DNA from: Amycolatopsis umgeniensis | Lineage (GTDB): Bacteria; Actinomycetota; Actinomycetes; Mycobacteriales; Pseudonocardiaceae | Direction: 5' to 3' | DNA: 64,000 bases | NCBI RefSeq assembly: GCF_014205155.1 | Contig: NZ_JACHMX010000001.1 | Location: 5,146,001 to 5,210,000 of the forward strand | Shown here: positions 3,637 to 60,400 of the stretch, piece by piece | Layout of the letters: each line of letters starts with the position of its first letter | How positions within the stretch are numbered: the first letter of the stretch is position 1 | Made by a program: the position numbers and the translations under genes | The notes under the pieces: generated by a model | What the model was told of the DNA's origin: nothing | What the model saw: only the letters and a program-made list of their open reading frames with translations | Database searches by the model: none

Positions 3637-3872
3637 GACTCGCCTTTAGCGGGCTAAACGCGATCCGGGGCCTGGGGGCACGACTCGCCTTTAGCCCCCT
3701 AATCGCGATCCGGGCCGCGCCACGCCCCCTGGCCGCCAGATCGCGTTTAGCCCGCTAAAGGCGCTCTGCCCGCCCTTGGCCCGCCCGCCCGCCGGATCGC
3801 GTTTAGCCCGCTAAAGGCGAGTCGTGCCGGTGGGGGAGGGGACGTGCGTTTAGCGGGCTAAACGCGATCCGG
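3637..3872. repeat. Cluster of five palindromic repeat copies between convergent genes
   Basis: Five copies of the dispersed TTTAGCGGGCTAAA-core element lie at about 3637-3668 (+), 3682-3713 (+, with a CCCCC centre), 3737-3764 (-), 3792-3823 (-) and 3841-3872 (+). The + orientation is defined by the flank GCGATCCGG on the right. Inverted neighbours could form long hairpins. The last copy provides the TAG stop of the leftward dipeptidase gene. This is the densest cluster in the window. Confidence 0.9.
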
Positions 3873-4658
3873 GGCGAGGGGGCCGCAGGTCAGGGAGTGC
3901 CGGGAGACGGGGAAGTCGAAGTAGGTGTCCGGGAACGGCTCCCCGTTGAACGTGTAGTGCCACCACTCCTCGGCGAGGTTCCGGAACCCGGCCGCCGCGA
4001 GCGTGCCCTTGAGCAGTTGCCGGTTCGCCCGGGCCTCGCCGGTGATCCGCGGGTCCTCGGTGTGCGAGAGCGTGTCGAAGCAGTCGTAGCCGGTCCCCAT
4101 GTCGACCATGTTGTCCGGGAATCGGTCCGGCGCGAAGCACGGAGTCAGCGCCTCGCCGGGCCGATAGGGGCGCTGAGGCCGAGGCGGCAGCTTCACGATC
4201 GTCAGGTCCACCGTGCTCCCGCGGCTGTGCCCGGACTTCTCCGCGATGTACCCGTCGGCGAACAGGCGGTCCTTCGCCACGTTCGGATAGAACTCCGCCT
4301 TCATCTTCTCGTCGGAGAGGTCCTTGGCCCACCGGACGAAGTGGTCGACGGCGCGCTGCGGCCGGTAGCAGTCGTACACCTTCAGCGTGTAGCCCTGCCG
4401 CAGCAGCCGCCGTTGCGCCGTGCGCAACCCCTCGGCGGCTTGCCGGGTCAGGATGCACAGCGGTTGGACGTACCCGTCGATCTTCCGGCCGACGAAGTTG
4501 TGCTGACCGCGGTACCGGATCTCGTGCAGGATCGTCGGCGCCACATCGGAGAGCGCCACGAACTCTGACGAAGCCTCAGAAGCTTGGGCGGGCGTGGGAA
4601 TCGCGGTGAGTACGGCGAGGGCGGCAGCGGCCAATGCCCTTCTGAACGTCTTCGGCAT
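3858..4658 (-). CDS. Secreted D-Ala-D-Ala dipeptidase, peptidase M15D (VanX-like)
   Basis: Zn-dependent D-alanyl-D-alanine dipeptidase of 266 residues with an N-terminal signal peptide (basic start, hydrophobic Ala/Leu core, cut near AQA|SEA), so it acts outside the membrane. M15 signatures are present: SGHSRGSTVDLT (SxHxxGxxxD zinc ligands and acid), EWWHY with the catalytic Glu and zinc His, and the YDCYRP strand before them. Known exported members release D-Ala-D-Ala or trim stem peptides; cytosolic VanX confers glycopeptide resistance. Here the signal peptide and lack of vanHA neighbours argue for wall recycling rather than resistance. The last residues DRV and the TAG stop come from a palindromic repeat copy (3841-3872). 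Promoter-like elements lie at 4699-4727. Confidence 0.9.
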   Translation of the reverse strand: MPKTFRRALAAAALAVLTAIPTPAQASEASSEFVALSDVAPTILHEIRYRGQHNFVGRKIDGYVQPLCILTRQAAEGLRTAQRRLLRQGYTLKVYDCYRPQRAVDHFVRWAKDLSDEKMKAEFYPNVAKDRLFADGYIAEKSGHSRGSTVDLTIVKLPPRPQRPYRPGEALTPCFAPDRFPDNMVDMGTGYDCFDTLSHTEDPRITGEARANRQLLKGTLAAAGFRNLAEEWWHYTFNGEPFPDTYFDFPVSRHSLTCGPLAPDRV

Positions 4659-4698
4659 GGACCTGTCTTACCTTCTCCGAAGACTCCGTGGACCTGCG

Positions 4699-4740
4699 GA
4701 TCTACCAGAGTTCCCCAGATTGCATAACGAAAACATAACG
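4699..4740 (-). promoter_or_regulatory. Putative promoter with tandem CATAACG direct repeat (MtrA/OmpR-like box)
   Basis: On the minus strand TTATGC (4722-4727) and TAGATC (4699-4704) are separated by 17 bases, a plausible -35/-10 for the dipeptidase gene. Overlapping the -35 region, CATAACG occurs twice on the plus strand (4723-4729 and 4734-4740), spaced 11 bases start to start. One-turn direct repeats of this kind bind OmpR-family regulators. The TAACG half-site resembles the GTAAC-type repeats reported for actinobacterial MtrA, a regulator of wall hydrolases. The assignment is an inference. Confidence 0.35.
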
Positions 4741-5242
4741 CCCGCGGACTTGCCGGATGCAGGTTACTGGTCCGTTGTGACCTGCAGTAGTGCCGCCAGG
4801 TGGCCCAATTCCCATTGCTCGGAAAACCGCCACCCGTTCGGCCTAGTGGCGCATCCGCATCGTGGGAAATTCACTCGACCGTGGCATGTCCCATTCTTTG
4901 ATCACGAGATTGACACTCGGGCGGCTTCGCACGAGTATTTCGCCCATGCAATCCCCAGTCGCCTTGGTGTGGCGCCGGCACGTTGACTTGCGGCAGCAAG
5001 CAAGCGCGCTGTGTACGGATTTCTGACACATTCCGGCTCATTGCGTCGTCCTTGAATTCGTGCATCCGAAACGGATGTGCCCGTTCTTCGTGCGCTGACG
5101 CTTTCCGCTGTGCCGCAACGGTTCCCAGGTCGAACCGGCGGTTGATTGCTTTCCCCTGATCCGTGCCGGTGACGCCTGCGCGAAAGAGGGGAGAGGTGTG
5201 CCAATTTGTCTGGCGCTTCGGTAGCGAAAACAGGGAGAAAGA
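4741..5242. other. Non-coding divergent intergenic region
   Basis: About 500 bases between the dipeptidase gene and the secreted propeller gene contain no convincing gene. Open frames here have no Shine-Dalgarno sequence and poor third-position GC bias. Composition is AT-richer than the surroundings, fitting a promoter region for the rightward operon. AGGGAGAAAG just before ATG 5243 is a good ribosome-binding site. Confidence 0.6.
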
Positions 5243-10017: not shown

Positions 10018-10032
10018 CCACCCCGCGCGCGG

Positions 10033-10117
10033 CGACTTTAGCGGGCTAATCGCGATCCGGCGCCCGGCACGCTCCCGGCCCCGCGCTGCGACTTTTAGCG
10101 GGCTAAACGCGATCCGG
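10033..10117 (+). repeat. Two direct palindromic repeat copies
   Basis: Copies at about 10033-10060 (TTTAGCGGGCTAATCGCGA variant) and 10088-10117 (TTTAGCGGGCTAAACGCGA), both in + orientation, lie in the gap between the MmpS-like gene and the acetyltransferase gene. Confidence 0.9.
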
Positions 10118-10159: not shown

Positions 10160-10660
10160 ATGACCTGGAGCTTCGAAGTCACCCCCGTCGATCACCCGGA
10201 CGCCGCCCGGCTGCTGCGCGAGTACCTGGACGAGATCGCGTCCCGCTTCTACGGGCGCCAGATCACCGACGACGAGCTCGACGCCGCGCTCGAGGAGCAC
10301 CACAGCCGGAATCTGACCCCGCCGACCGGCGCGTTCCTCCTCGCGTGGCGCGACGGGGTGCTCGCCGGTTGCGCCGGGCTGCGGGTCGCCGCTCCCGACA
10401 TCACCGAGCTCACCCGCGTCTTCCTGCGCAAGTCCGAGCGGGGCAAGGGCGGCGCGGCGCTGCTCGTGGCCGCCGCCGAGGACGTCGCCCGCGGCCTCGG
10501 GGCCACGCTGATCCGCCTCGACACCCGTGACGACCTCGTCGAGGCGAGGGCTCTGTACACGCGCCTCGGCTACGAAACGGTCGAGCCCTTCAACGACGAG
10601 CCGTACGCCCATCACTACTTCGCGAAGTCCCTGGCCGCGGCCCTGCCGGATCGCGTTTAG
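10160..10660 (+). CDS. GNAT-family N-acetyltransferase
   Basis: Protein of 166 residues with the GNAT fold: a strand (VLAGCAGLRVA), the acetyl-CoA loop in RVFLRKSERGKGGAALLVAAAE (RxxGxG/A motif A), and a C-terminal ALYTRLGYETVEPF motif B. ATG 10160 starts the homologous region; upstream in-frame sequence is only translated repeat and is unlikely to be coding. The acceptor substrate is unknown. The last residues (DRV) and the TAG stop at 10658-10660 lie inside a palindromic repeat copy shared with the convergent gene. Confidence 0.85.
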   Translation: MTWSFEVTPVDHPDAARLLREYLDEIASRFYGRQITDDELDAALEEHHSRNLTPPTGAFLLAWRDGVLAGCAGLRVAAPDITELTRVFLRKSERGKGGAALLVAAAEDVARGLGATLIRLDTRDDLVEARALYTRLGYETVEPFNDEPYAHHYFAKSLAAALPDRV

Positions 10661-10676
10661 CCCGCTAAACGCGACG
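10646..10676 (-). repeat. Palindromic repeat copy providing stop codons to both convergent genes
   Basis: The copy reads GATCGCGTTTAGCCCGCTAA from about 10649. TAG on the plus strand at 10658-10660 ends the acetyltransferase gene. On the minus strand the mirrored GTTTAG (10665-10667 for TAG) ends the membrane-protein gene. The four bases between the two coding ends are the centre of the element. Confidence 0.92.
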
Positions 10677-12077
10677 TGGGCGGGGGGCGTAGGTGGCCTT
10701 CGCGAGGAGGGTGCCGACGAGGACGGGGGTCAGTCCGATCAGCAGCAGGAAGACGCCTGTGTCCTTGCCTTCGATCAGCGGATGCCACCACAGCGGCGTC
10801 ACGGCGATGTCGACGACGTCGCCACGCTCCGGGAACGTCCCGAACGACATCCACCACAGGTCCTTGACCTCGTGCGCCTCACCGTCGAGTTCGTAGGTGC
10901 CGTCCACCAGGTTGCTGTTGCCGCAGCTCGTGCAGCTAGCCGTACCCGCCTCCGCCCGCAGGGTCGCGGTCACGGTGAGCCGCGCCTCGGGAGCGAGCCC
11001 GGTCAACGCGGTCAGCGAGTTCACCGCGAGCGCCAGCCCCGGCAGCACCAAGGCGAGCGCGACGACCGTGCGCGCCACCAGTGACAGCGTCGACAGCGGC
11101 TGACGCCCGCCGGCTTCCCGGCGCCGGTTGAGCGGCCCGCGGAGCCCCGCGAGCGGGCCCTGCCGCTTCCCGAGCCATCCGGCGTCACTCGTGTCGGAAC
11201 CCGCTGCGACAGCACGGAAATCCGCGTCTTCCCAGTCCACTGTGGACGCCAGTGTGGCCAGACGGCGGGAGTCGGCGAACATCACCTCTTCGGTCAGCGT
11301 CCCGGCTTCGGAGGCCCACAGCGAGCCGCCGTGGAAAGCCACTTCCCGGACCCGGAACCACGGATCGCCGTCCAGCAGGTCACGGACGCCGGTGCCGAGC
11401 AGGGCGCGCGCGAACTCCGGATCGGACGTCGTCACGGTGAACCGGCGGTCGAACTCCGTGCCCGTCTCGAACCGTTCCAGCAGAGCGTCCGGCTTCGGCG
11501 CTCCGACGGTGTTCCGCGTGATGCGGGCGTCCTCCAACGGCGTGAACCGTTCCGGCTCGAACGCGCCCGTGGCGGGAGTGATGACGACCGACGGCACGAC
11601 GGGCGTCCGAAGCTGGATCAGGGCGTACGTCCCGCCCATCAGGTCGCCTGTCCCAGCCGGCTCCGGAGATCCACCGAGCCCGTACTCGACCCCCAGCAGC
11701 CGATGCCCGTTGTGCCCGAACTCGACCGCCGTCACCACGGACTCGGGAGACGCCTGGGCGACCGCGATTCCCCGCACGGGAAGCACACCGAACGAAGGCT
11801 CACCGGCCCCGTCGAGCCTGCCGATCCACGTCTTCTGCCGATAGCCCCGCCACGCCGCCAAAGCCGCGATGACCACCGGGAACGCGAACCACAGCCAGCC
11901 GAACCCCGCCGAGAGCCAGTACAGCGACGTCTCGGACACGAGGATCCCGCAGAGCGCGTAGCTGACGGCCGCCGCTGTCGGCCGCCTGCCGTCGAACCGC
12001 CCGCCGAGCAGGAGCAGCGCCAGTGCCAGTGCGTACCCACCGGCGATGAGCCACGGCCCGGCCAGCTGATCGTCCAT
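10665..12077 (-). CDS. Membrane protein of unknown function
   Basis: Protein of 470 residues. About three membrane helices lie in residues 8-78, a soluble middle region covers ~80-330, and two more helices sit near 333-355 and 436-458. The loop between the last two resembles DUF3592-like extracellular loops and contains a CTSC motif (CxxC) that could bind metal or be redox active. The gene starts 9 bases after the stop of the upstream secretion-substrate gene, so it is the last member of a four-gene leftward set. Its stop lies in a palindromic repeat. The family is not recognised with confidence. Confidence 0.7.
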   Translation of the reverse strand: MDDQLAGPWLIAGGYALALALLLLGGRFDGRRPTAAAVSYALCGILVSETSLYWLSAGFGWLWFAFPVVIAALAAWRGYRQKTWIGRLDGAGEPSFGVLPVRGIAVAQASPESVVTAVEFGHNGHRLLGVEYGLGGSPEPAGTGDLMGGTYALIQLRTPVVPSVVITPATGAFEPERFTPLEDARITRNTVGAPKPDALLERFETGTEFDRRFTVTTSDPEFARALLGTGVRDLLDGDPWFRVREVAFHGGSLWASEAGTLTEEVMFADSRRLATLASTVDWEDADFRAVAAGSDTSDAGWLGKRQGPLAGLRGPLNRRREAGGRQPLSTLSLVARTVVALALVLPGLALAVNSLTALTGLAPEARLTVTATLRAEAGTASCTSCGNSNLVDGTYELDGEAHEVKDLWWMSFGTFPERGDVVDIAVTPLWWHPLIEGKDTGVFLLLIGLTPVLVGTLLAKATYAPRPRRV

Positions 12078-29357: not shown

Positions 29358-29410
29358 CTTGCGCTCGCTTCGGTCGCGCGCCCTCGCTCCGCTCGGCTCC
29401 GCTCCACCGG

Positions 29411-29606
29411 CGCGACTTTCGCGGGCTAATCGTCATCCGGCCCCTTCTCCCTGGCCCTCCCGGGGGCTCGCCTTTAGCGGGCTAAACGCGATCTGGGGCC
29501 CTGAGCCCTCCCGGCCCAGCGCGGCGACTTTAGCGGGCTAATCGCGATCGGGTGGTCGCCCGGGCGCCCGCGGCCCAGATCGCGTTTAGCCCGCTAAAGT
29601 CGCCGC
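29411..29606. repeat. Four palindromic repeat copies after the spc operon
   Basis: Copies lie at about 29411-29440 (+, degenerate: TTTCGCGGGCTAATCGTCA), 29467-29496 (+), 29521-29552 (+) and 29576-29606 (-). The last two are inverted to each other with a single mismatch in the arms and could form a long hairpin. The gap between rplO and the next gene (29301-29649) holds only these, the terminator and a low-complexity CGCTCGCTTCGGTCGCG-like stretch. Confidence 0.9.
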
Positions 29607-29649: not shown

Positions 29650-30417
29650 GTGGACACACCTTCCGGGCAGGATCGGCGGCCCTTCCAGCAGCAGCCGGAT
29701 GTCCAGCCGACGGTCGTATCCGTTTCAGGTCCCCTCGATCCTCCAGGAGAACCAAGCCGGCCTGAGCCTCGCAGGCTCGTCACGGCGGGGCTGGTCGCTC
29801 TGGCCCTGGTGCTGACCCTCGTAGGCTGCTTCTTCCCGCTCTTCAGGACCGAGCATCGGTTCACTTTCGAAGCCGTCGAACAGACCATGTTCGTATTCGT
29901 GCAGAGCGCGTGGGACACGACCGCGGAACAGCGCGGCCAACCCGCCTCCGCGACGTCGACATCGACGTCACCGATCGGTATCCCGCTCTTGGCTGCCGCG
30001 ACGCTCCTGCTGGCGGCTGCGGTCGTCAGCACGCGGCTCGTCGGGCGTCCTCGCCCGAGAGCTCTGGACAAGTGGCTCACCACCATCGCGGCGGTATTCC
30101 TCGCCGGCGTCGTCAGCTGCGTCGCCACGCTGGGGGTCGGACCCCGACTGGGAGATGACGTCAAGGTGACCGTGACCCTCGAAGCGGGCATGTGGGCTCT
30201 CTTCGCCGCAGTCGCCGCATCACTGGGTGCCGCGGTCATGAGCCACCGTGTCGAGGAGGCCGAGGTCCCGGTGAGCGGCGACCTGAGTCTCGCGGAGATG
30301 CCCACTCCGAAGGACGGCATCTCCATCACGGTGCTTCCGCCGGAGCCACAGCCCGAGCAGCCGGACTACTCGGCCTTCGCCCCGCCTCCGGATCCCGGTC
30401 CGAAAGAGCGCGATTAG
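29650..30417 (+). CDS. Tetra-spanning membrane protein of unknown function
   Basis: Protein of 255 residues from GTG 29650 (GGGAG 9 bases upstream; upstream in-frame codons belong to repeat). A Pro/Gln-rich cytoplasmic N-terminus is followed by about four membrane helices (LVTAGLVALALVLTLVGCFF first), with an extracytoplasmic loop after the first, and a Pro/Glu-rich C-terminal tail. No family is recognised. The final RD and the TAG stop fall inside a palindromic repeat (30405-30432). It lies 50 bases before a LysE-type exporter gene. Confidence 0.7.
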   Translation: MDTPSGQDRRPFQQQPDVQPTVVSVSGPLDPPGEPSRPEPRRLVTAGLVALALVLTLVGCFFPLFRTEHRFTFEAVEQTMFVFVQSAWDTTAEQRGQPASATSTSTSPIGIPLLAAATLLLAAAVVSTRLVGRPRPRALDKWLTTIAAVFLAGVVSCVATLGVGPRLGDDVKVTVTLEAGMWALFAAVAASLGAAVMSHRVEEAEVPVSGDLSLAEMPTPKDGISITVLPPEPQPEQPDYSAFAPPPDPGPKERD

Positions 30418-30432
30418 CCCGCTAAACGCACT
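30405..30432 (-). repeat. Palindromic repeat copy supplying a stop codon
   Basis: GCGCGATTAGCCCGCTAAAC from about 30408. TAG at 30415-30417 ends the upstream membrane-protein gene. Confidence 0.9.
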
Positions 30433-30467
30433 CGCGTCGGTCGATACGGTGGGCGAGGAGGTGGCCG

Positions 30468-31100: not shown

Positions 31101-31118
31101 GCCCGGTCTCCGATCACA

Positions 31119-31147
31119 GCGCGTTTAGCGGGCTGATCGCGATGCGG
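31119..31147 (+). repeat. Palindromic repeat copy between the LysE-type gene and secY
   Basis: A slightly diverged copy (GTTTAGCGGGCTGATCGCGA) lies 19 bases after the exporter stop. Confidence 0.85.
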
Positions 31148-34113: not shown

Positions 34114-34311
34114 CCGGATCGCGTTTAGCCCGCTAAAGGCGAGGTGGCCAGAGCGCGATTAGCCCGCTAAACGCAAGTCCGCCCGCTGGTCGGCGTAGTG
34201 CCGAAGCCCGCCGATGAGGCGCCCGGGCGTTGCCTCCATCGGGTGCACCTCGTCCGCCGAGCGCGCCAGGCCACCGCCCCGCCGGATCGCGTTTAGCCCG
34301 CTAAACGCAGG
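34114..34311 (-). repeat. Three palindromic repeat copies between map and infA
   Basis: Copies at about 34114-34144, 34150-34177 and 34282-34311, all in minus orientation (GGATCGCGTTTAGCCCGC form). They occupy the first half of the 466-base gap after map; the rest holds the putative infA promoter. No gene is convincing in the gap. Confidence 0.9.
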
Positions 34312-34402
34312 TCGGCGGAGGCGTACGATGGCAAAGGTCGCTACTGGTGGGCTCAGCGGTCACCTAACACGGTTACCCCCCGTTTGGGGCTCACGACACG
34401 GG

Positions 34403-38607: not shown

Positions 38608-39510
38608 CTGACGGCACCGAACACCCCGGACGAGCCCGCCACTCCCACTGCGGAGGGCGGGCTCGTTCGTCTGCGTCTGGATGTTTCCTACGACGGCACC
38701 GATTTCTCGGGCTGGGCCCGACAGCCCGGGCGGCGCACGGTCCAGGGAGTCCTCGAAGAGGCGCTCGCGAAGCAGCCTCCGGGAGCTTCGGTCCCGAAGT
38801 CCGTCGTCGTCGCCGGCCGCACCGATGCCGGTGTGCACGCCTCCGGCCAGGTGGTCCACGTCGACGTGTCGCCTTTAGCGGGCAAAACGCGATCCGGCCG
38901 CCTGGAACTGGACGAGCAGGGCATTCCTGACCTGGGGCGGATGCGTCACCGATGGAATCGGTACCTGCCGGGTGACGTGCGGGTGCTGGATGCCCGGGTC
39001 GCCGCGCCCGGATTCGACGCGCGGTTCTCCGCTGTACGGCGGCACTACCTCTACCGCGTCTCGGATGCGCCTTGGGGCGTGGATCCCCTGCGGCGTCACG
39101 ACACGCTCGCTTGGGGGCGGCCTCTCTCGATCGAGGCGATGAACGAGGCCTCGGCGTCTCTGATGGGGCTCCAGGACTTCGCGGCCTTCTGTAAGCAGCG
39201 CGAGGGCGGGACGACCATTCGAGAGCTGCAACGGCTTGTCTGGCGGCGGACAGGACCACACGCTGTCGAGGTCGACGTCTCCGCTGACGCGTTCTGTCAC
39301 TCAATGGTGCGCAGCCTGGTCGGGGCGCTGCTCTTGGTCGGCGACGGTCGTCGCCCGCTGGATTGGCCCGGAGACGTCCTCGAGAGCCGCACGCGCGATA
39401 GCGCTGTCGCTCCCGCGCACGGCCTCACGCTGATGGCCGTCGACTACCCGCCGGACACCGAACTCGCGGCCCGCGCCGATCAAACGCGCGCCATGCGCAC
39501 TTCCTCCTGA
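38608..39510 (+). CDS. truA: tRNA pseudouridine synthase TruA
   Basis: TruA, about 300 residues, makes pseudouridine at positions 38-40 of tRNA. The catalytic Asp is D73 in GRTDAGVH, and FSAVRRHYLYRV and CHSMVRSLVGALLLVG are family motifs. No ATG, GTG or TTG lies in frame between the rplQ stop and the conserved domain. CTG 38608, 8 bases after AAGAAGGA, is the likely start. Residues 88-97 (SPLAGKTRSG) are a translated palindromic repeat copy, placed in a surface-type loop after the catalytic region, with its in-frame TAA changed to AAA. The 3' end overlaps the convergent DUF559 gene by 31 bases. Confidence 0.93.
   Translation: MTAPNTPDEPATPTAEGGLVRLRLDVSYDGTDFSGWARQPGRRTVQGVLEEALAKQPPGASVPKSVVVAGRTDAGVHASGQVVHVDVSPLAGKTRSGRLELDEQGIPDLGRMRHRWNRYLPGDVRVLDARVAAPGFDARFSAVRRHYLYRVSDAPWGVDPLRRHDTLAWGRPLSIEAMNEASASLMGLQDFAAFCKQREGGTTIRELQRLVWRRTGPHAVEVDVSADAFCHSMVRSLVGALLLVGDGRRPLDWPGDVLESRTRDSAVAPAHGLTLMAVDYPPDTELAARADQTRAMRTSS
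38869..38897 (+). repeat. Palindromic repeat copy inside truA, stop removed
   Basis: The copy reads TTTAGCGGGCAAAACGCGAT where the usual element has GGGCTAAACGCG. The base at 38884 is A instead of T, turning the in-frame TAA into AAA (K93). The rest matches, including the GCGATCCGG flank. Confidence 0.92.
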
Positions 39511-40526: not shown

Positions 40527-40578
40527 GCCGACGCGATTGCCCCTTGACGGACTACTCGCGCCCCGCTTCCCGCCTCAG

Positions 40579-40608
40579 GTCGACTTTAGCCGCCTAATCG
40601 TCACGCGG
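40579..40608 (+). repeat. Degenerate palindromic repeat copy
   Basis: GACTTTAGCCGCCTAATCGT: centre changed to GCCGCC and the GATCCGG flank replaced. It lies 14 bases from the terminator described at 40616-40655. Confidence 0.75.
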
Positions 40609-40615
40609 GGCGGAC

Positions 40616-40655
40616 GCAAAAACGGGGGCACTGTCCGATGTGGACAATGCCCCCG
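40616..40655 (-). terminator. Intrinsic terminator of the leftward eccE gene pair
   Basis: On the minus strand CGGGGGCATTGTCC pairs with GGACAGTGCCCCCG (one mismatch pair) and is followed by TTTTTGCG. It is one of the few terminators here with a real U-tract. It lies about 40 bases after the 240-residue protein gene. Confidence 0.85.
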
Positions 40656-40656
40656 C

Positions 40657-40685
40657 GGAGCGCGATTAGCCCGCTAAAGTCGCCG
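40657..40685 (-). repeat. Palindromic repeat copy after the eccE gene pair
   Basis: GCGCGATTAGCCCGCTAAAG form, located between the stop at 40693 and the terminator at 40616-40655. Confidence 0.88.
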
Positions 40686-40692
40686 TGTCGGG

Positions 40693-45138: not shown

Positions 45139-46290
45139 ATGATCGCCGAGTCGGACAACCCGACCGATTCCATCCCGCACCCGATGGCGGCCGCACGCCA
45201 AGCCGCTCCCGAGGCGACCCCGATCGCGTTTAGCCCGCTAAACGCGACCGGCTCGGGCGGTGAAGACCTGGTCGAGGCCGCGGCGCCGCATCTCGCCTTC
45301 GTTTCGGAACTGTCCGGCCAACTGGGGCTGATCGATCCGGTCGAGACCTACCTGACCCCGCTCGCGGGGCGCTGGGAGGACTTGAAGGACGAGGCGGACA
45401 AGCTCCGGAAAGCAGCGGCGACCGCGGGCACCGTGTCGAAAGAATTGTCGGAGGATCTCGGCCGCCTCGACGCGGGGTGGTCCGGTAAGGACGCCGATGC
45501 GTTCGTCGCCTACATCGCGGACATCAACGTCGCGGGCAATGACGTCGAAGACGCCCTCAACACGCTGGCGGGTTCGCTCGACGAGCTGGTGCTGTCGATC
45601 CGTCGCATCCTGACCGATCTGGTCGAGGTTCTGGTCGATACGGCCGAACTGACCTCCGAGACCGCCATGTTGCCGGTCGGCGGCGTCCGGCGGGCGCGAG
45701 CTCAGCTGGAGGAGGCGCAGGAGTCGGCCAAGGCGCTTTTCGAAGCCGCTCGCAACGTCCTTGAGGGATTCGTGCGGCTTTGCGACGGCGTCGATGATCC
45801 TGACGCCGTCTCGCGAAGCATCGCGATCGCCCACCGGTACCCGCAGGACGAGTTCAAGCTCCACGACGATTCCGAGGCGGCCAGTGCGCCGGCGCCGGAG
45901 AGGGACGCCGCTGAACCGGATTCCGGTGCCGCGTCCGAGGAGCAGTCGACGTCGCCGTCCGCGGCCGATCCCGCCGACGGCCGGAAGACCGGCTCGCAGG
46001 AACCACTGACCGAGCAGGGGCAGGCGCTGATCCCGGAGGTCGCGCCCGTGCAGGCCGCTCCGGCTCAGGGGCAGGCCGCGGGGACGGGCTCGGCGATGAT
46101 GCCGATGGGGATGGCGCCCATGATGGGGATGGGCGGTGGTGGTGGAGGCCGGACGGCTCACCAGTCGAAGACGCGGCCCGCGTCCAAGCCGTCCGATGTG
46201 GTCGGGGAGCCCGGCCAGGTCGTCCCGCCCGTGATCGGCGAGGACGACGCCCCGGCGAAGCCCGCTCAGAAGCCCAAGCCCGCCAAGTAG
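45139..46290 (+). CDS. Large WXG100-domain T7SS substrate-like protein
   Basis: Protein of 383 residues. The N-terminal ~27 residues are polar, then a translated palindromic repeat (IAFSPLNAT, 29-37). A WXG100-type helical hairpin with W-S-G at ~114 (LDAGWSGKDADAF) follows, a coiled-coil-like helix to ~215, and a disordered Ala/Pro/Glu-rich C-terminus with a Met/Gly patch (MMPMGMAPMMGMGGGGGG) and Pro/Lys tail. The layout recalls EspB/PPE-like substrates. It is probably secreted by the adjacent ESX system together with the small protein upstream. Confidence 0.75.
   Translation: MIAESDNPTDSIPHPMAAARQAAPEATPIAFSPLNATGSGGEDLVEAAAPHLAFVSELSGQLGLIDPVETYLTPLAGRWEDLKDEADKLRKAAATAGTVSKELSEDLGRLDAGWSGKDADAFVAYIADINVAGNDVEDALNTLAGSLDELVLSIRRILTDLVEVLVDTAELTSETAMLPVGGVRRARAQLEEAQESAKALFEAARNVLEGFVRLCDGVDDPDAVSRSIAIAHRYPQDEFKLHDDSEAASAPAPERDAAEPDSGAASEEQSTSPSAADPADGRKTGSQEPLTEQGQALIPEVAPVQAAPAQGQAAGTGSAMMPMGMAPMMGMGGGGGGRTAHQSKTRPASKPSDVVGEPGQVVPPVIGEDDAPAKPAQKPKPAK
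45219..45250 (-). repeat. In-frame palindromic repeat copy in a T7SS substrate gene
   Basis: GATCGCGTTTAGCCCGCTAA from about 45222, read as IAFSPLNAT in the only stop-free frame of this orientation. Confidence 0.93.
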
Positions 46291-46305
46291 GTGCCCCATG
46301 GGCGG

Positions 46306-46390
46306 AGCGACTTTAGCGGGCTAAACGCGATCTGGGCGGCTCGGAGGCGAGACCCGGACAGATCGCGTTTAGCCCGCTAAACGCGAGTCC
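46306..46390. repeat. Inverted pair of palindromic repeats between convergent genes
   Basis: A + copy at about 46306-46336 and a - copy at 46359-46390 share a perfect inverted arm of about 23 bp, separated by about 22 bases. They fill the 99-base gap between the WXG substrate gene and mycP. They could act as a bidirectional terminator. The mycP stop directly abuts the right copy. Confidence 0.92.
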
Positions 46391-49463: not shown

Positions 49464-49885
49464 CCCCCTGCCCTGAAAGTCTGGTCCCGGGGAACCTATA
49501 CCGAACCCGGGTGCCCACATCATCGACTGTCGGAAAAAGACCGGCAAAAGTAGGCGAGGCGACTTCCGAAGCCCCTCACGCCGGCTCCGCGCGCGTCGAC
49601 TTTAGCCCCCTAATCGCGACGCTTAGGGGGCCTAAGTGTTCCGGAGGTCCCGTGGCCGTCGGATCGCGATTAGCCCCCTAAAGTCGACGTGGGTCGGCCG
49701 GAGGCCTGCGGGTTCGTTGGGGACTGTCGGTCCGGAGCCCTACACTCCCGACATGCGTACGGCCCCGGCCGGGGCCGTTCTCGGCGTTGTCCGGATTTCA
49801 CCGGCCACGTTCGATAGGTTGTCTCGCGCACCAGTACGCGCACCAACGGTGGCCGCCATCGTCGAGTTTGAAGAGGGGTCCTTCG
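49464..49885 (+). promoter_or_regulatory. Divergent eccD/eccC intergenic region with putative eccC promoter
   Basis: The 422-base gap holds two repeat copies (see 49595-49690) and a possible promoter TTGGGG (49717-49722), 18 bases, TACACT (49741-49746). A perfect palindrome GGCCCCGGCCGGGGCC (49761-49776) follows downstream. No gene is convincing here. Confidence 0.4.
49595..49690. repeat. Inverted pair of the C5/G5-centred repeat subfamily
   Basis: Copies at about 49595-49622 (GACTTTAGCCCCCTAATCGC) and 49658-49690 (inverted, CGATTAGCCCCCTAAAGTCG). Between them CTTAGGGGGCCTAAG (49622-49636) looks like a further partial core. The centre is five C or G instead of GCGGGC. Confidence 0.88.
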
Positions 49886-52800: not shown

Positions 52801-53893
52801 GATCACCAAGCTCGCCACCCAGGGTCTTTCCTACGGCGTGCACGTCATCATCGCGGCGAACCGGTGGGCGGACATCCGCCCGGCGATCAAGGACATGATC
52901 GGCACCCGGTTCGAGCTGCGCCTCGGTGACCCGAGCGAGTCGGACATCGACCGCCGGGTCGCGGTGAACGTCCCGTCCGGCCGTCCCGGCCGCGGTCTGA
53001 CCAGGGACAAGCTGCACCTGCTGACCGGTCTTCCCCGCATCGACGGATCGAGCAACCCGGACGACGTCGCCGCCGGTGTCGCCGACGCGGTGGCGAAGAT
53101 CAAGGCCGCGTGGCGGGGCCGCCCGGCACCGCAGGTCCGCCTGCTGCCGGAGATGGTCACCTACGACGAGGTCCTGTCCATCGACACCAAGCGCAACACG
53201 AAGCTGGTGCCGATCGGTGTCAACGAGGAAGACCTCCAGCCGATCTACCTCGACTTCGCCGCCGATTCGCACTTCTACGCGTTCGCCGACGGCGAGTCGG
53301 GCAAGACGAACCTGCTGCGCCAGATCACCCGGGGCATCACCGAGCGGTACACGACGCAGGAAGCGGTCGTCATCCTCGTCGACTACCGGCGCACGATGCT
53401 CGGCTTCGTCGGCGGAGACCAGTTGCTCGGCTACGCGGTTTCCGCCGCGCAGCTGGACAGCATGGTCAAGGACGTCCACGGGTCGATGAGCAGGCGGCTC
53501 CCCGGTCCGGACGTGACGCAGGAGCAGCTGAAGACCAGGTCCTGGTGGACCGGTCCGGAGCTGTTCATCATCGTCGACGACTACGACCTGGTCGCCACCC
53601 AGACGAGCAACCCGCTGAAGCCGCTCGCCGAGTTCCTCGCGCAGGCGAAGGACGTCGGTCTGCACGTGATCGTGGTGCGCCGCAGTGGTGGTGCGAGCCG
53701 GGCGATGTTCGACCCGATCCTCGGCAAGCTCAGGGAGATCGCGGCGCCCGGTATGGTCATGAACGGCTCGCGGGACGAGGGCAACCTCGTCTCCAACGTG
53801 AAGCCGAGCCAGATGCCGCCGGGACGGGGAAACCTCGTGACCCGGAAGCACGGCAAGCAGCTCATGCAGGTCTCGTGGATCCAGCCGGACTGA
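49886..53893 (+). CDS. eccC: Type VII secretion ATPase EccC (fused EccCa-EccCb)
   Basis: EccC, 1335 residues. ATG 49886 (MSTLQFKKSPRLAAPRPPGG) has AGAGGGG upstream. Two membrane helices (about 38-60 and 66-86, with a Met-rich loop) are followed by three FtsK/SpoIIIE ATPase domains. Walker A motifs are GATGSGKS near 480, GGPQSGKS near 845 and ADGESGKT near 1135; the first domain also has LFIVCDEFSELL (Walker B). EccC recognises the YxxxD/E tail of substrates and powers secretion. The single-chain form is typical of ESX-4 and of non-mycobacterial systems. Confidence 0.95.
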   Translation: MSTLQFKKSPRLAAPRPPGGEVHLEPPPEVPRTIPGNIVMKLLPAVMIVASLGMMVFMFTTGGRNPMMMMMGGMMVLSTVGMMAGGAGKGGGAKKAEMDEDRKDYLRYLGQMRDRAREAMVDQRAALEWVHPDPQTLWSLAASRRMWERRQNDQDFLHLRVGRSSHRLATRLVPPQTGPVDELEPIATLALRRFVRAHSIVPDLPTQITLRGFAAVSMQGDRGLTRGLTRAMLAQLVTFHSPDDVLIAVATAGRAKEEWEWAKWLPHAQHPALADGIGQLRMMAGSLAQIEQWLDEELRDRQRFSRNATPAPDQPHVVIIVDDAEVTREEQIILEEGLVGVTLIDLSDSIGNLAARRGLRLVVEEDRLGARSAGGVEWFGRPDTLSVVESEALARLLAPYRVGTAAQDAAEEEPLLSNPGLLELLGIPGDPMTFDVQQAWRPRPVRDRYRVPFGVGEYGQPVELDIKEAAMEGMGPHGLCIGATGSGKSEFLRTLVLGMLATHSSSTLNFVLVDFKGGATFLGLDAAPHVSAVITNLADEVTLVDRMKDALAGEMNRRQEALKNGGNFKNVWEYEKARENGADLDPLPALFIVCDEFSELLAAKPDFIDLFVAIGRLGRSLQMHMLLASQRLEEGKLRGLDSHLSYRIGLKTFSAAESRAAIGVPDAFELPSVPGGGYLKYDTSTLVRFKASYVSGPYRPAGIKAAGPVATVVRADKRPQLFVPDFVELPKEPEPQQIEAAPVEQAKSEEAVEPSELDVIVSRLIGQGPPAHEVWLPPLKEPNSLDTLLPNLNPTDDRGLSPVGFFGNGRLQVPMGIVDRPYEQRRDLLWGDFSGAAGHGVIVGGPQSGKSTMLRTLIMSMALTHTPEEAQFYALDLGGGTLAGLQGLPHVGGVAVARREPDKARRIVAELTTLLTEREGRFGAMGIDSMNEFRNRKRRGEIKPEEDAFGDAFLIVDNWKALRDDFDELETSITKLATQGLSYGVHVIIAANRWADIRPAIKDMIGTRFELRLGDPSESDIDRRVAVNVPSGRPGRGLTRDKLHLLTGLPRIDGSSNPDDVAAGVADAVAKIKAAWRGRPAPQVRLLPEMVTYDEVLSIDTKRNTKLVPIGVNEEDLQPIYLDFAADSHFYAFADGESGKTNLLRQITRGITERYTTQEAVVILVDYRRTMLGFVGGDQLLGYAVSAAQLDSMVKDVHGSMSRRLPGPDVTQEQLKTRSWWTGPELFIIVDDYDLVATQTSNPLKPLAEFLAQAKDVGLHVIVVRRSGGASRAMFDPILGKLREIAAPGMVMNGSRDEGNLVSNVKPSQMPPGRGNLVTRKHGKQLMQVSWIQPD

Positions 53894-53961: not shown

Positions 53962-55872
53962 GTGACTGTGCGGGTAGCGGTGGACTTCGGGACATCGAGC
54001 ACCTGCGTAGTGGCGTCGATCAACGGCCGCGAGCCGCAGGTCGTCGTGGTGGACGGGCAGCCCCTGATGTCGTCGGCGGTCTACGCCGCGCCGGACGGGA
54101 CGCTGTTCGTCGGCCAGGAGGCGGAACGGCAGGCGGCGGTGGATCCGTCGCGCTACGAGCCGAATCCGAAGCGCCGGATCGACGAAGGCGACCTGCTGCT
54201 GGGCGACAACGTCCTCCGCGTCACCGACGTCGTCCACGCAGTGCTGAAACGCGCGGTGACAGAGGCTCGCCGGCTCGCCGGTGACGCCGAGGTCGAGTTG
54301 CTCGTCCTGACCCACCCGGCCGATTGGGGCGCGACCCGGACCCGTCTGCTCCGGCAGGCCGCGGGCGGGCTCGCGCGTCAGGTCGCCCTCGTGCCGGAGC
54401 CGGTCGCCGCGGCGGTCTACCACGCGGCGACGTTCGCCCCGGCCGATCTCAACTCCGAGCGCACCGTCGAGTTCAGCGGCAGGCCGGGGGACGCCCTCGC
54501 GGTGCTCGACCTCGGTGGCGGCACCGTCGACGTCTCCGTGGTCCAGCGCATGCCCGGCAGTCCGGCGGATCGCAGTTTGCCCGCTAAACGCGCCGGGTTC
54601 CAGGTGCTGGCCACCCGGGGGGATCCGAGCTTCGGGGGCGCAGACGTCGATCAGGCGCTCCTGGAACACGTGGGTTCGCTGGTGTCGTCCGTCGATCCGC
54701 CGGAATGGCGGAAGCTGGTCGAAGGCCGAGAGCTGACCGACAGGCGGCGTCGCCGAGTCCTGAGGCAGGACGTGCGTGGCGCGAAGGAGACGCTGTCGCG
54801 GCACGCGTACACCGACGTTCCGATGCCGCCGCCGTTCGCCGACGCCCACGTGACCCGCGAGGACCTCGAGCGGATCATCGCGGGCCCGCTCGGCCGCGCG
54901 GTCGAGCTGACCGTGGCCGCGATCGGTGATTCCGGGCTGCGGCCGAAGCAGCTGACGGCGATCTTCCTCGTAGGCGGGTCGAGCCGGATCCCGATGGTGT
55001 CCCGGCTCGTGCACGAACGGACCGGTGTCGTCCCCACGACCCTGGACCAGCCGGAGACCGTGGTCGCCCGCGGCGCCCTGCGCGCCGTGCTGATCGACCC
55101 GGACCGGACCGGATCGCTGGCGGGTTCCGCGGTCTCCCGTGTCGGCGGCGCCCCCGCACCGGCTCCCGCCGACCGGCGCCCTCAGTTCGCCCCAGGCCCT
55201 CGCCAGCCCGCCCCGCCCCCGCAGAGCGCGTTTAGCCCGCTAAACGCGACGCGGCAGGGGCCGCCGACACCGCCGCCCTGGCGGCCGGGTGAGCCCTCCC
55301 GTGAGACCAAGCCCGCCGAGCGAGGCGGCAAGGGCAAGAAGACGCCTTGGATCATCGCGGCGGCCGTCGTGGTCGTGGCGGCCGTAGTCGGCGGCGTGCT
55401 CTTCGCGGTCAACAGCGGTGAGGACGAGCCGGAAGGTCGGACGCTCGCCCAGTACGACTATCGCTTCATCGCGCCGCTGGACTGGATGCAGACCGACGAC
55501 CGCGTCGCCAAGCGTCAGGTGGTGATCCATCCGAACGACTCCCTCGCCGGGGACGACCTCGTGGTCGCCCAGGAGTACGTGATGAACTACGACGCGACGG
55601 CCGACAGACAGAAGCTCGTCGACGACCTCGGCGCCGAGGCCGGGCGAGAGCCGGACAAGTACAGCGGTTTCAACGGTTCCGCGACCTACGCGGGCAAAAC
55701 CGTCATCTACTACCGCGAGACCAAGCCGAAGGCACGCGTCGACTGGTACGTCGTCGCTCAGGGAAAGATCCGCGTCCACATCGGTTGCCAGTACGGCACC
55801 GGCTCACCGCTCGAACAGCGGGTGAGCGCGGCCTGCGAGCAGGTCGTCAAAACGATGGTGGTCGTCAACTGA
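53962..55872 (+). CDS. Hsp70-like ATPase fused to T7SS-associated extracytoplasmic domain
   Basis: Protein of 636 residues. Residues 1-~375 are an Hsp70/actin-fold ATPase: phosphate-1 DFGTSSTCVV (8-17), phosphate-2 VLDLGGGTVDVSVV (181-194), and adenosine motif FLVGGSSRIPMV (~330-341). A Pro-rich linker, one membrane helix (~463-485), and a ~150-residue extracytoplasmic domain follow. The latter resembles the Rv3446c-type T7SS-associated family (TIGR03931) found beside eccC in ESX-4 loci. There is no substrate-binding SBD or lid. Two palindromic repeats are translated within it: DRSLPAKR at 203-210, where the usual TAG has been lost, and AFSPLNAT in the linker. The gene starts 68 bases after eccC. 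Confidence 0.8.
   Translation: MTVRVAVDFGTSSTCVVASINGREPQVVVVDGQPLMSSAVYAAPDGTLFVGQEAERQAAVDPSRYEPNPKRRIDEGDLLLGDNVLRVTDVVHAVLKRAVTEARRLAGDAEVELLVLTHPADWGATRTRLLRQAAGGLARQVALVPEPVAAAVYHAATFAPADLNSERTVEFSGRPGDALAVLDLGGGTVDVSVVQRMPGSPADRSLPAKRAGFQVLATRGDPSFGGADVDQALLEHVGSLVSSVDPPEWRKLVEGRELTDRRRRRVLRQDVRGAKETLSRHAYTDVPMPPPFADAHVTREDLERIIAGPLGRAVELTVAAIGDSGLRPKQLTAIFLVGGSSRIPMVSRLVHERTGVVPTTLDQPETVVARGALRAVLIDPDRTGSLAGSAVSRVGGAPAPAPADRRPQFAPGPRQPAPPPQSAFSPLNATRQGPPTPPPWRPGEPSRETKPAERGGKGKKTPWIIAAAVVVVAAVVGGVLFAVNSGEDEPEGRTLAQYDYRFIAPLDWMQTDDRVAKRQVVIHPNDSLAGDDLVVAQEYVMNYDATADRQKLVDDLGAEAGREPDKYSGFNGSATYAGKTVIYYRETKPKARVDWYVVAQGKIRVHIGCQYGTGSPLEQRVSAACEQVVKTMVVVN
54562..54595 (-). repeat. Palindromic repeat copy in the Hsp70-like gene, stop removed
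   Basis: GATCGCAGTTTGCCCGCTAA from 54568 against the usual GATCGCGTTTAGCCCGCTAA. GTTTAG has become AGTTTG, so the in-frame TAG is now TTG and the reading frame is preserved. Confidence 0.9.
55223..55253 (-). repeat. In-frame palindromic repeat copy in the Hsp70-like gene linker
   Basis: GCGCGTTTAGCCCGCTAAAC from about 55226, translated as AFSPLNAT in the Pro-rich linker before the membrane helix. Confidence 0.93.
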
Positions 55873-58006: not shown

Positions 58007-58068
58007 CGGTGGTCACCTCGGGGCGTCGAGAACTGCACGGCGTCGGGACGAAGGCGTTCGGCCATGCT

Positions 58069-59234: not shown

Positions 59235-59687
59235 TTGCCCACGTACAGCCCCAAGCCCGGCGACGTCACTCGTGCCTGGCACGTGATCGACGCCGAGGAT
59301 GTCGTGCTCGGCCGGCTCGCGACCGAGGTCGCCACGCTGCTGCGCGGCAAGCACAAGCCGACCTACGCCCCGCACGTGGACACCGGTGACTTCGTCATCA
59401 TCGTCAACGCCGAGAAGGTTGCGCTCACCGGAAACAAGCGCGAGCAGAAGTTCGCGTACCGGCACAGCGGTTACCCCGGCGGCCTGCGGAAGCGCTCCTT
59501 CGGCGAACTGCTCGACACCAAGCCCGAGCACCTGCTCGAGAAGGTCGTCAAGGGCATGCTCCCGAAGAACAAGCTCGGCCGCGCCCAGGCGAAGAAGCTC
59601 AAGGTGTACGCCGGCGCCGAGCACCCGCACGCCGCGCAGCAGCCGCAGGCGCGCGAGATCACCAAGATCGCGCAGGTCGCGCAGTGA
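59235..59687 (+). CDS. rplM: 50S ribosomal protein L13
   Basis: L13, 150 residues. TTG start supported by the conserved [20 protein letters not shown] opening. It includes [18 protein letters not shown] and [17 protein letters not shown]. An early 50S assembly protein. Its stop overlaps the rpsI GTG (GTGA). The 275-base gap before it holds a GGCGCCC/GGGCGCC hairpin (59074-59090) but no clear promoter. Confidence 0.97.
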
Positions 59688-60217
59688 GTGAGGAACAGTC
59701 TGTGACCAGCACCGAGGAGACCGCGACCGAGGCCACCACCGAGGCCGTCGCGACCACGGAGACCCCCGCAGTCGGCGACGCCGTCGCGACCAGCGAGACG
59801 CCTGCCGCCCCGCGGCCGTCGCGTGCCGCCGGTGGCAACGCCCAGACCGTCGGCCGCCGCAAGGAAGCCGTGGTCCGGGTGCGCGTCGTTCCCGGTACCG
59901 GTGAGTTCAAGCTCAACGGCCGCACGCTCGAAGAGTACTTCCCGAACAAGGTGCACCAGCAGCTCATCCGTGAGCCGCTGGTGACGGTCGACAAGCCCGA
60001 CTCGTTCGACATCTTCGCCAACCTGCACGGTGGCGGGATCTCGGGCCAGGCCGGCGCGCTCCGTCTCGCGATCGCCCGTGCGCTCGTCGAGGTCGACGCC
60101 GACGACCGCCCGGCCCTGAAGAAGGCCGGCTTCCTGACCCGTGACGCTCGCGCCACGGAGCGGAAGAAGTACGGCCTCAAGAAGGCCCGTAAGGCTCCGC
60201 AGTACAGCAAGCGCTGA
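59684..60217 (+). CDS. rpsI: 30S ribosomal protein S9
   Basis: S9, 177 residues. A ~45-residue Thr/Ala/Glu-rich N-terminal extension precedes the core [20 protein letters not shown] and ends in the conserved [12 protein letters not shown], whose terminal Arg touches P-site tRNA. GTG start overlapping rplM. A terminator follows 22 bases later. Confidence 0.97.
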
Positions 60218-60239
60218 TCGCGCCTCTGGCGCAACCCGC

Positions 60240-60274
60240 GGAAGCGCCCATCCGTCTTTCGGATGGGCGCTTCC
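60240..60274 (+). terminator. Intrinsic terminator after rpsI
   Basis: GGAAGCGCCCATCCG (60240-60254) pairs perfectly with CGGATGGGCGCTTCC (60260-60274), a 15-bp stem with a TCTTT loop. Confidence 0.92.
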
Positions 60275-60338
60275 GTGTTTCCGGGGTCCCGCCGTTCTCT
60301 CGGGCCCCGTTGTCACAGCAGTCCCGCGTGCCCCACGC

Positions 60339-60400
60339 GTTCGCCTTTAGCGGGCTAAACGCGCTCCGCGCGTCGCGTTTAGCCCGCTAAAGGCGAAGTC
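60339..60400. repeat. Perfect inverted pair of palindromic repeats upstream of glmM
   Basis: A + copy (60340-60363) and a - copy (60374-60397) are exact inverted repeats over 24 bp with a 10-base loop. They lie between the rpsI terminator and the glmM Shine-Dalgarno and could form a long hairpin in the gap. Confidence 0.95.

What the first reader, a model, noticed from the sequence alone, without database searches (positions are those of the whole stretch)
3637..60400. Dispersed, oriented palindromic repeat family with core TTTAGCGGGCTAAA, 30 copies in 64 kb
I count 30 copies of a ~28-32 bp element. It has a TTTAGC/GCTAAA inverted core and an asymmetric flank ending GCGATCCGG on one side; the other flank is GACTCGCC, GCGAC or GCG. 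A core of 14 bases should occur less than once by chance in this length. No copy lies in the 14.8-29.3 kb r-protein operons; most sit at operon ends or between convergent genes, and several form inverted pairs. Bacterial REP/BIME elements and Rickettsia palindromic elements are the nearest precedents. I do not recall a description of this one and see no transposase here.
Basis: partly seen in the sequence, partly recalled or inferred. Interest (0 to 1): 0.88.

Follow-up and report, generated by a model that had tools for sequence, protein, structure and literature searches.

The report
Palindromic repeats confined to chromosome territory
A short hairpin-like DNA repeat in an Amycolatopsis bacterium is packed almost entirely into one stretch, about one twentieth, of the chromosome, sits at the same places in related species, and differs there by whole sequence versions, which suggests that such repeats can copy over one another only within a chromosome neighbourhood.

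Summary
The repeat is real: 30 copies in the window, core far above chance. It is not dispersed: of 65 exact cores in the 9.23 Mb chromosome, 60 lie in 415 kb, 0.53-0.94 Mb from dnaA. In relatives copies are again regional, mostly at orthologous places. In the close relative G019, 51 of 52 anchored loci hold a core. The elements differ there by discrete types: at 10 of 72 aligned sites three adjacent core bases differ together, 4 of them in loci of equal length. Arrays gain or lose units. Flanks differ between species but in several stay complementary. Types are well mixed inside the territory. A genome-wide palindrome family is missing from most of it. G040 has a second territory on the opposite arm. 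No Y1/RAYT transposase in 80 Amycolatopsis genomes. Best reading: a REP/BIME-like, transposase-less hairpin repeat kept by ectopic copy replacement within a chromosome compartment. Sites for an unknown domain protein, or a local mobiliser, remain possible. New variant of a known kind; mechanism unproven.

The parts
3637..3668 (+). copy 1 (exact core)
3682..3713 (+). copy 2 (CCCCC..AAT type)
3736..3767 (-). copy 3 (exact core)
3792..3823 (-). copy 4 (exact core)
3841..3872 (+). copy 5 (exact core); copies 1-5 form one array
   Evidence: G019 has 2 cores here
10029..10060 (+). copy 6 (AAT type)
10086..10117 (+). copy 7 (exact core), 57 bp from copy 6
10646..10677 (-). copy 8 (exact core), between convergent genes
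29409..29440 (+). copy 9 (TTTCGC..AAT type, CGTC next to the core)
29465..29496 (+). copy 10 (exact core)
29521..29552 (+). copy 11 (AAT type)
29575..29606 (-). copy 12 (exact core); copies 9-12 are 56 bp apart
30403..30434 (-). copy 13 (AAT type)
31116..31147 (+). copy 14 (GAT type), a single-copy locus; G019 has CCCCC..AAT at the same place, locus length unchanged
34114..34145 (-). copy 15 (exact core)
34148..34179 (-). copy 16 (AAT type)
34282..34313 (-). copy 17 (exact core)
38866..38897 (+). copy 18, inside an ORF with a tRNA pseudouridine synthase domain (PF01416), read as SPLAGKTRSG; the core's TAA reads AAA
39518..39549 (+). copy 19 (diverged)
40577..40608 (+). copy 20 (diverged core TTTAGCCGCCTAAT)
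40655..40686 (-). copy 21 (AAT type)
45219..45250 (-). copy 22 (exact core), near the start of an ORF with a WXG100 domain (start codon by my gene call), read as IAFSPLNAT
46304..46335 (+). copy 23 (exact core)
46358..46389 (-). copy 24 (exact core), 56 bp from copy 23
49593..49624 (+). copy 25 (CCCCC..AAT core)
49659..49690 (-). copy 26 (AAT type)
54565..54596 (-). copy 27, inside an ORF with an HSP70 domain, read as RSLPAKRAG; the base that would give TAG differs
55221..55252 (-). copy 28 (exact core), in the open frame of the same ORF, read as SAFSPLNAT
60338..60369 (+). copy 29, in the gap between a ribosomal-protein gene (rpsI by eye) and the gene at 60469-61803 (glmM by eye)
60368..60399 (-). 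copy 30, inverted partner of copy 29; together one 26-bp-stem hairpin

Best explanation
A REP/BIME-like family of imperfect palindromes (28-36 bp; core TTTAGCGGGCTAAA, hairpin of 5-6 bp with a CGGG loop and variable lower arms) that has no Y1 transposase and lives in a chromosome territory. Shown: copies sit at loci shared between species, often at gene 3' ends; orthologous copies differ by discrete types, arrays expand and shrink by whole units, and types are mixed throughout the territory. Inferred: a copy is from time to time overwritten from another copy (short-tract ectopic template exchange, probably when the hairpin is single-stranded at a replication fork or is cut and repaired), and the exchange partners are limited to DNA in the same nucleoid neighbourhood. 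New loci arise rarely, so the family stays regional. Any cellular function (3'-end RNA structure, protein binding) would be secondary.
For: 60 of 65 exact cores in 415 kb (p 1e-74 if copies were independent, which arrays are not). Regional in relatives, exact cores: G021 15 of 15 in 121 kb, G072 32 of 34 in 319 kb, G019 41 of 45 in 376 kb, G052 48 of 51 in 459 kb. Of 29 first-copy loci of genus relatives, 21 align to the own territory. 51 of 52 anchored own loci hold a core in G019; 57 loci, 5 without anchors. At 72 of 94 sites aligned to G019, core positions 7-9 differ all three together in 10, two in 2, one in 3, none in 57; 4 of the 10 are in loci of equal length within 1 bp, one of these a single-copy locus. 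The alternative type TTTAGCCCCCTAAT exists at other sites too: 5 in the own territory, 15 in that of G019. Element-bearing gains and losses such as 35, 36, 46 and 53-54 bp. At 28 sites shared with G030 the make-up of types differs: own 13 TTTAGCGGGCTAAA, G030 2. Complementary flanks that differ between species around a fixed core in several relatives and strong hairpins for some point to a single-stranded or hairpin stage. No isolation by distance: r -0.051 over 53 loci, p 0.82. G040's two territories differ in flank types (CGCGCTC 0 of 20 against 17 of 55; CGTCGTC 8 of 20 against 5 of 55; p 0.004 each, types chosen after looking). In-frame intragenic copies with stop-avoiding differences look like inserted sequence. 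PF01797 in 0 of 80 genomes.
Against: No exchange and no donor was observed, and the direction of the type differences is not known. Four of the ten three-base differences lie in arrays whose length differs between the two genomes, so different copies may have been paired there; two more lie in loci that differ by 13 bp. No enzyme is identified. Over its full 28 bp the element is no more conserved than its flanks (2.88 against 2.17 and 2.94 differences). Single own elements fold weakly (z -1.3, -1.5, +0.8). No strand bias (44 and 50). The compartment is inferred from the repeat itself; there is no contact map. G040's second territory lies 0.75-1.17 Mb from dnaA, the first 0.71-1.33 Mb, but in G018 and G072 the glmM part of the main territory lies 1.8 and 1.24 Mb from dnaA if those contigs are circles, so the distance is not fixed. 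Another genus of the family (G087) has the core genome-wide with other flanks, so confinement is not a property of the core itself.
Confidence: 0.47

Rival explanations
1. The copies are binding sites of an unknown DNA-binding protein that organises this chromosome domain, in the manner of matS/MatP. Arrays at about 56 bp would be cooperative sites.
For: Confinement and stable loci; spacing of 55-58 bp in 19 of 32 close pairs although the spacers match poorly; arm positions 0.978 identical between own and G019 (19 of 864 differ) against 0.898 in flanks (569 of 5597 differ), the 12 arm positions being chosen after the fact; a second territory on the opposite arm in G040.
Against: The centre differs as GGG against CCC at orthologous sites and the element as a whole is no better conserved than its flanks. 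In the non-carrier G059, 0 of 38 anchored gaps hold it and no comparably enriched palindrome stands in its place. Exact-core numbers run from 1 to 79 among the 31 carriers of the genus. Arms covary as in hairpins in several relatives. Outside 55-58 bp the helical phasing is weak (p 0.07). A gene list for the region gave no convincing factor.
Confidence: 0.2
2. An unidentified, cis-preferring mobiliser (not of the Y1 family) encoded in or near the territory spreads the copies locally, as REPs gather near some rayt genes.
For: Published precedent: REPs accumulated near rayt genes, in regions of at most two hundred kilobases, in three gammaproteobacteria and partly in Thauera (PMC2817692, section 8 read); T. 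roseum GTAG-23 elements clustered in blocks at few loci (PMC3733652, section 15 read). Intragenic copies. Few-copy relatives G012 and G075 have their exact cores by glmM, within 15 and 25 kb.
Against: No Y1 gene in 80 genomes. Little sign of recent free insertion: one empty locus among 52. No distance effect inside the territory. No transposase-like gene noticed among 58 territory genes missing from or weak in the G059 stretch (judged by eye from sequence starts).
Confidence: 0.15
3. The elements act as RNA: 3'-end hairpins that stop transcription or protect mRNAs of this core-gene region.
For: Enriched in convergent gaps; complementary arms; very stable pair at 60338-60399 (z -8.7).
Against: At the gap before the gene at 60469 a separate terminator-like hairpin is seen in all 14 loci that show the gap, 10 carriers and 4 non-carriers, of 30 loci printed (by eye). 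The flank after the core is CGCGATC in most copies, not a T run. It would not explain absence elsewhere. Copies also lie in divergent gaps and inside ORFs. No Rfam match in the window.
Confidence: 0.1
4. A 400 kb segment was imported from a donor in which the repeat is genome-wide (such as the G087 lineage).
For: G087 has 117 copies; the 71 listed lie on seven contigs.
Against: G087 flanks are different (gtac, gggac); deep Amycolatopsis lineages carry copies in the same place; for 38 of 57 loci the flanking sequence can be anchored in the non-carrier G059.
Confidence: 0.03

Closest known systems
REP/BIME repeats with RAYT (Y1) transposases
   Same: Short imperfect palindromes in intergenic space, convergent preference, inverted pairs and arrays, some intragenic copies, sequence variants that keep the palindrome; regional REP accumulations are on record near some rayt genes (PMC2817692, abstract, passages and section 8; PMC3733652, abstract, passages and section 15).
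   Different: No Y1 gene in 80 genomes; no constant GTAG or CGTC tag; confined to one territory, larger than the published two hundred kilobases, without a rayt gene.
CGTC-REPs and Rickettsia palindromic elements
   Same: Reported to lack a dedicated transposase and to occur inside ORFs (PMC3733652, abstract, passages and section 15).
   Different: CGTC stands next to the core in 2 of 94 own sites, plus one diverged window copy at 40585; in G040 8 of 20 and 5 of 55 right flanks read CGTCGTC, whether as an unpaired tag was not tested.
matS/MatP and similar domain-marking sites
   Same: A short site repeated tens of times in one domain: matS is a 13-bp target repeated 23 times in 800 kb (PMC3330122, abstract and outline).
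   Different: No protein known; type differences at orthologous sites; the territory lies 0.53-0.94 Mb from dnaA; not found in the non-carrier group.

Membership tests
REP (RAYT-associated) | 20-40 bp imperfect palindrome, many intergenic copies, pairs and arrays | tested here: met
REP (RAYT-associated) | cognate Y1 transposase gene in the genome | tested here: not met
   PF01797 in 0 of 80 Amycolatopsis genomes; control rang in 5 of 14
REP (RAYT-associated) | constant GTAG (or CGTC) at one end | tested here: not met
   of 94 own sites, CGTC next to the core in 2, GTAG within 14 bases in 4
REP (RAYT-associated) | spread over the whole genome in most cases | tested here: not met
   60 of 65 exact cores in 415 kb; published exceptions exist
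matS/MatP-like domain sites | sites confined to one domain at stable loci | tested here: met
matS/MatP-like domain sites | cognate DNA-binding protein | tested here: inconclusive
   58 territory genes missing from or weak in the G059 stretch, looked at by eye, no convincing candidate; the rest of the genome was not searched
matS/MatP-like domain sites | effect on domain structure | not testable with these tools
   needs contact maps
parS | parS sequence near oriC | tested here: not met
   parS-like matches (consensus recalled) lie at 4.4658-4.4691 Mb, dnaA at 4.473 Mb; the repeat is a different sequence elsewhere
intrinsic terminator | hairpin followed by a T run | tested here: not met
   right flank CGCGATC in most copies; separate terminator-like hairpin at one gap

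The most novel reading that the evidence does not exclude
The repeat is a natural record of nucleoid compartments: hairpin repeats overwrite one another only among loci that meet in the cell, so each compartment breeds its own repeat types, well mixed inside and distinct outside, and the opposite chromosome arm at a similar distance from oriC can be colonised because the arms lie side by side.
Probability: 0.2. Interest if true: 0.82.

Novelty: new variant of a known kind. Interest (0 to 1): 0.62.

Why it matters
Bacterial palindromic repeats are usually tied to transposases and are usually genome-wide. Here is a family without the usual transposase that stays in one conserved territory of the core chromosome across part of a genus and appears to change types in concert there. 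It gives a way to ask whether ectopic exchange in bacteria is limited by chromosome compartments, and it offers dozens of natural, scorable sites per genome to measure this.

Tried and rejected
Genome-wide dispersal: rejected. A general exclusion zone for palindromes at this place: rejected, since in the non-carriers G059 and G054 another family is spread over the genome and also occurs in or near the orthologous part (3 exact copies in the 400 kb stretch of G059, expected 2.9). Strict exclusion between this family and palindrome family B: rejected; B stands between two copies at 5.109 Mb and B-like hairpins alternate with copies at 3.770 Mb, and the absence of B from 5.109-5.540 Mb is p 2e-7 by copies but 4e-4 by doublets, on an interval chosen after looking. 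Helical phasing as proof of protein binding: weak outside 55-58 bp (p 0.07). Distance decay of types inside the territory: none. Strand bias: none (44 and 50). Simple replacement of B by this family in G040: of 45 G040 clusters only 15 could be anchored in the own left arm, with B in 4 own gaps (one of these also with family C), this family in 1, neither in 10 (own gaps up to 1.4 kb, so not always the same spot). Territory span growing with copy number (an early note): dropped, because exact-core counts miss changed types. Candidate trans factor: 58 genes listed, none convincing. Rfam: nothing in the window. Precise insertion ends: not obtained, because G059 gaps are too diverged and only one locus is empty in G019. 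Papers: nine of ten searches used; none of the listings named this repeat, and searched six core strings directly.
Full report
Check of the observation. TTTAGCNNGCTAAA with up to 3 mismatches occurs 35 times in the window against 3.57 expected. Five of the 35 have 3 mismatches and poorly matching flanks and were dropped; 30 copies remain, 16 with an exact core. A wider consensus (TTTAGCGGGCTAAACGCGATC, up to 5 mismatches) gives 97 sites in 4.986-5.430 Mb of the own chromosome, 28 of them in the window. The three sites with 5 mismatches, all outside the window, look like chance and were dropped; the 94 sites with up to 4 mismatches were used below.

Not dispersed. The own chromosome (9,225,930 bases, one contig) has 65 exact cores; the reversed pattern has 1. 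All 65 are in the listing: 60 between 4.9987 and 5.4140 Mb, four at 3.770 Mb, one at 4.155 Mb. dnaA lies at 4.473 Mb and parS-like sites (consensus recalled) at 4.4658-4.4691 Mb, so the territory is 0.53-0.94 Mb to the right of dnaA and the small cluster 0.70 Mb to the left.

Relatives. With the pattern TTTAGCSSGCTAAA, 33 of 150 genomes (own included) match, 31 of them among the 80 of the genus, two of the 31 with a single copy. Places could be read for 14 of the 31 carriers, for some in part; for the other 17 I saw only the count and at most the first copy. In the readable ones the copies are regional: G030 8 of 8 in 183 kb, G020 21 of 21 in 166 kb of one contig, G053 8 of 8 in 114 kb, G075 4 of 4 in 25 kb, G012 3 of 3 in 15 kb; in part, G042 26 listed of 33, all in 241 kb, G018 24 of 25 listed (35 in all) in 212 kb, G006 13 of 15 listed (36 in all) in 103 kb of one contig. 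From: G021 15 of 15 in 121 kb, G072 32 of 34 in 319 kb, G019 41 of 45 in 376 kb, G052 48 of 51 in 459 kb. Of 29 first-copy loci from genus relatives, 21 align well to the own territory, one (G052) only weakly, seven not. Of those eight, six map to the own left arm: G019, G018, G079, G006 and G052 at own 3.634, 3.641 and 3.770 Mb and G043 near 3.88-3.89 Mb; G048 and G040's first copy match neither region. The gene at window 60469-61803 (glmM by eye) was found in 79 of 80 genus genomes: 95-99% identical in 17 close relatives, all carriers; 86-90% in a large group without exact cores except G069 (21 copies) and G032 (1); 80-85% in G053, G040, G076, G070 (1 copy), G020, G043, G010, G055, G075 and G012, all carriers, and in G004 and G062, non-carriers. 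So the repeat looks ancestral in the genus and lost, or changed beyond the pattern, in a middle group; no tree was built, and transfer is not excluded. The closest named relatives are Amycolatopsis; contig lengths tie G015 to A. regifaucium GY080 and G069 to an Amycolatopsis MAG. Among 80 named glmM loci, 3 carry a core with up to 1 mismatch.

Two territories in G040. G040 has 79 exact cores: 40 at 2.82-3.43 Mb, 6 scattered at 3.62-4.18 Mb, 33 at 4.89-5.31 Mb; dnaA is at 4.145 Mb. Of 15 G040 loci read up to 3.29 Mb, 12 align to the own territory, in inverted order. The second territory is collinear with the own left arm: 67 of 70 5-kb pieces from 4.97 to 5.32 Mb have their best hit at own 3.60-3.97 Mb, one of them out of order (only the two own regions were searched). 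With up to 4 mismatches G040 has 54 sites in 4.92-5.32 Mb, 47 of them in the collinear part, against 6 in the own left arm. So a territory can arise on either arm. Whether its similar distance from oriC means anything is open: in G018 and G072 glmM lies 1.8 and 1.24 Mb from dnaA if those contigs are circles.

Loci stay, types differ. Of 57 own clusters, 52 could be anchored in G019 and 51 of these have at least one core there; the exception is 5.0888 Mb. Many length differences carry an element (35, 36, 46, 53-54, 64, 66, 76 bp, and larger in long arrays); a few do not involve it. 72 of 94 sites could be aligned without a gap in the core. Core positions 7-9 differ together in 10 of them, two differ in 2, one in 3, none in 57, often with the last A against T. 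Of the ten, four lie in loci equal in length within 1 bp (5122811, 5122847, 5177124, 5310805), two in loci that differ by 13 bp, and four in arrays of different length, where different copies may have been paired. The alternative type exists at other sites: 5 times in the own territory, 15 times in that of G019. In four G030 stretches (80 kb), 31 own sites were aligned, 28 without gaps in the core; there the own genome has 13 TTTAGCGGGCTAAA and 8 TTTAGCGGGCTAAT, G030 has 2 and 7, with 6 TTTCGCGGGCTAAT and 4 GTTCGCGGGCTAAT. Across relatives the core stays and in several the flanks change on both sides together, for instance in G020, G043 and G055; in others they pair only in part. Inside the territory, type similarity does not fall with distance: 53 loci, r -0.051, p 0.82. 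G040's two territories differ in flank types, p 0.004 for each of two types chosen after looking, from 20 sites of the first (not all of it was read) and 55 of the second. Against selection on every copy: over 28 bp the element is as divergent as its flanks (2.88 against 2.17 and 2.94 differences); only its arm positions stand out (19 of 864 differ against 569 of 5597 in flanks, the 12 positions chosen after the fact).

Anatomy. The right flank begins CGCGATC in 58 of 86 sites with a near-exact core; left flanks fall in a few classes; the AAT ending goes with a GAC left flank in 16 of its 26 copies. In 19 of 32 neighbouring pairs under 100 bp the spacing is 55-58 bp with poorly matching spacers. 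The inverted pair at 60338-60399 folds at -35.7 kcal/mol (z -8.7); three single own elements fold weakly, one each of G020 and G043 strongly. A separate terminator-like hairpin stands upstream of the pair in all 14 loci that show this gap, 10 carriers and 4 non-carriers, of 30 printed (by eye). Four window copies lie inside ORFs that match Pfam domains (tRNA pseudouridine synthase, WXG100, HSP70 twice); in two of them the frame would meet TAA or TAG, and a base differs so that it stays open.

Other palindromes of this genome. Family B (CGAAAGTGGCTTTCG, 332 exact copies, many in doublets 30 bp apart; only the first 100 places, to 3.55 Mb, were listed) and family C (GAAGGGGCCCTTC, 91 copies, all listed) occur along the chromosome. 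With up to 2 mismatches B is absent between 5.1092 and 5.5403 Mb, within the 844 kb that I read there (exact copies expected 15.5, p 2e-7, or 4e-4 by doublets). C is too rare to judge. In the non-carriers G059 and G054 a further family is spread over the genome and not kept out of the corresponding region, so the place itself does not repel palindromes.

Transposase and literature. PF01797 (Y1) is in 0 of 80 genus genomes; the control rang in 5 of 14. REPs that gather near a rayt gene, in regions of at most two hundred kilobases, are on record (PMC2817692, section 8), as are REPs clustered in blocks at few loci, REPs without a dedicated transposase and REPs inside ORFs (PMC3733652, abstract, passages and section 15). 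That REPs may evolve by gene conversion is an old idea: a review title of 1988 asks it (seen only in a reference list). PMC2267715, PMC4681348, PMC3116915 and PMC6006769 were seen in passages only, PMC3330122 in abstract and outline.

Conclusion. A REP/BIME-like hairpin repeat without the usual transposase, confined to a conserved territory. I commit to compartment-limited ectopic copy replacement as the most likely mechanism (0.47; lowered from 0.5 on checking, because only four of the ten three-base differences lie in loci of equal length), with an unknown domain protein (0.2) and a local mobiliser (0.15) as rivals. Shown: confinement, shared loci, discrete type differences, unit gain and loss, complementary arms in several relatives, no Y1 gene. 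Inferred: the exchange itself, its trigger, and the compartment.

Noticed in passing
own chromosome, e.g. L066 and L159-L178 (3.56-3.98 Mb): Palindrome family B: 332 exact copies of CGAAAGTGGCTTTCG, often doublets 30 bp apart; one unit folds into a 25-bp perfect stem.
   Followed up: partly
own chromosome, e.g. 3.9438 and 3.9535 Mb: Palindrome family C: 91 exact copies of GAAGGGGCCCTTC, some in series 30 or 60 bp apart.
   Followed up: partly
G059 and G054, e.g. L325, L326: Non-carriers have another hairpin family GTGAG..GTTAGAAC..CTCAC, 70 and 143 copies over the genome, with stems that vary but often stay complementary.
   Followed up: partly
G087, L067-L095 (odd numbers): A different genus of the family carries the same 14-bp core 117 times (71 listed, on seven contigs) with other flanks (gtac, gggac).
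   Followed up: partly
window 38866-38897: One copy lies in an ORF with a tRNA pseudouridine synthase domain; PMC3733652 section 15 reports REPs in such genes in several other species.
   Followed up: no
L055, near 5213230: A copy inside a called gene shows a 36-bp longer version in G019, 12 codons, so the frame would be kept.
   Followed up: no
window 3858-4559: A Peptidase_M15 (D-Ala-D-Ala dipeptidase) gene stands beside the five-copy array; no match was found in the G059 stretch.
   Followed up: no
window 45139-53893: Genes with WXG100, subtilase and FtsK/SpoIIIE domains suggest a type VII secretion locus (the locus label is recalled).
   Followed up: no
the five stretches compared: The palindrome GTCCACNGTGGAC is over-represented in carriers and in the non-carrier alike (8-12 copies per 400-444 kb).
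   Followed up: no
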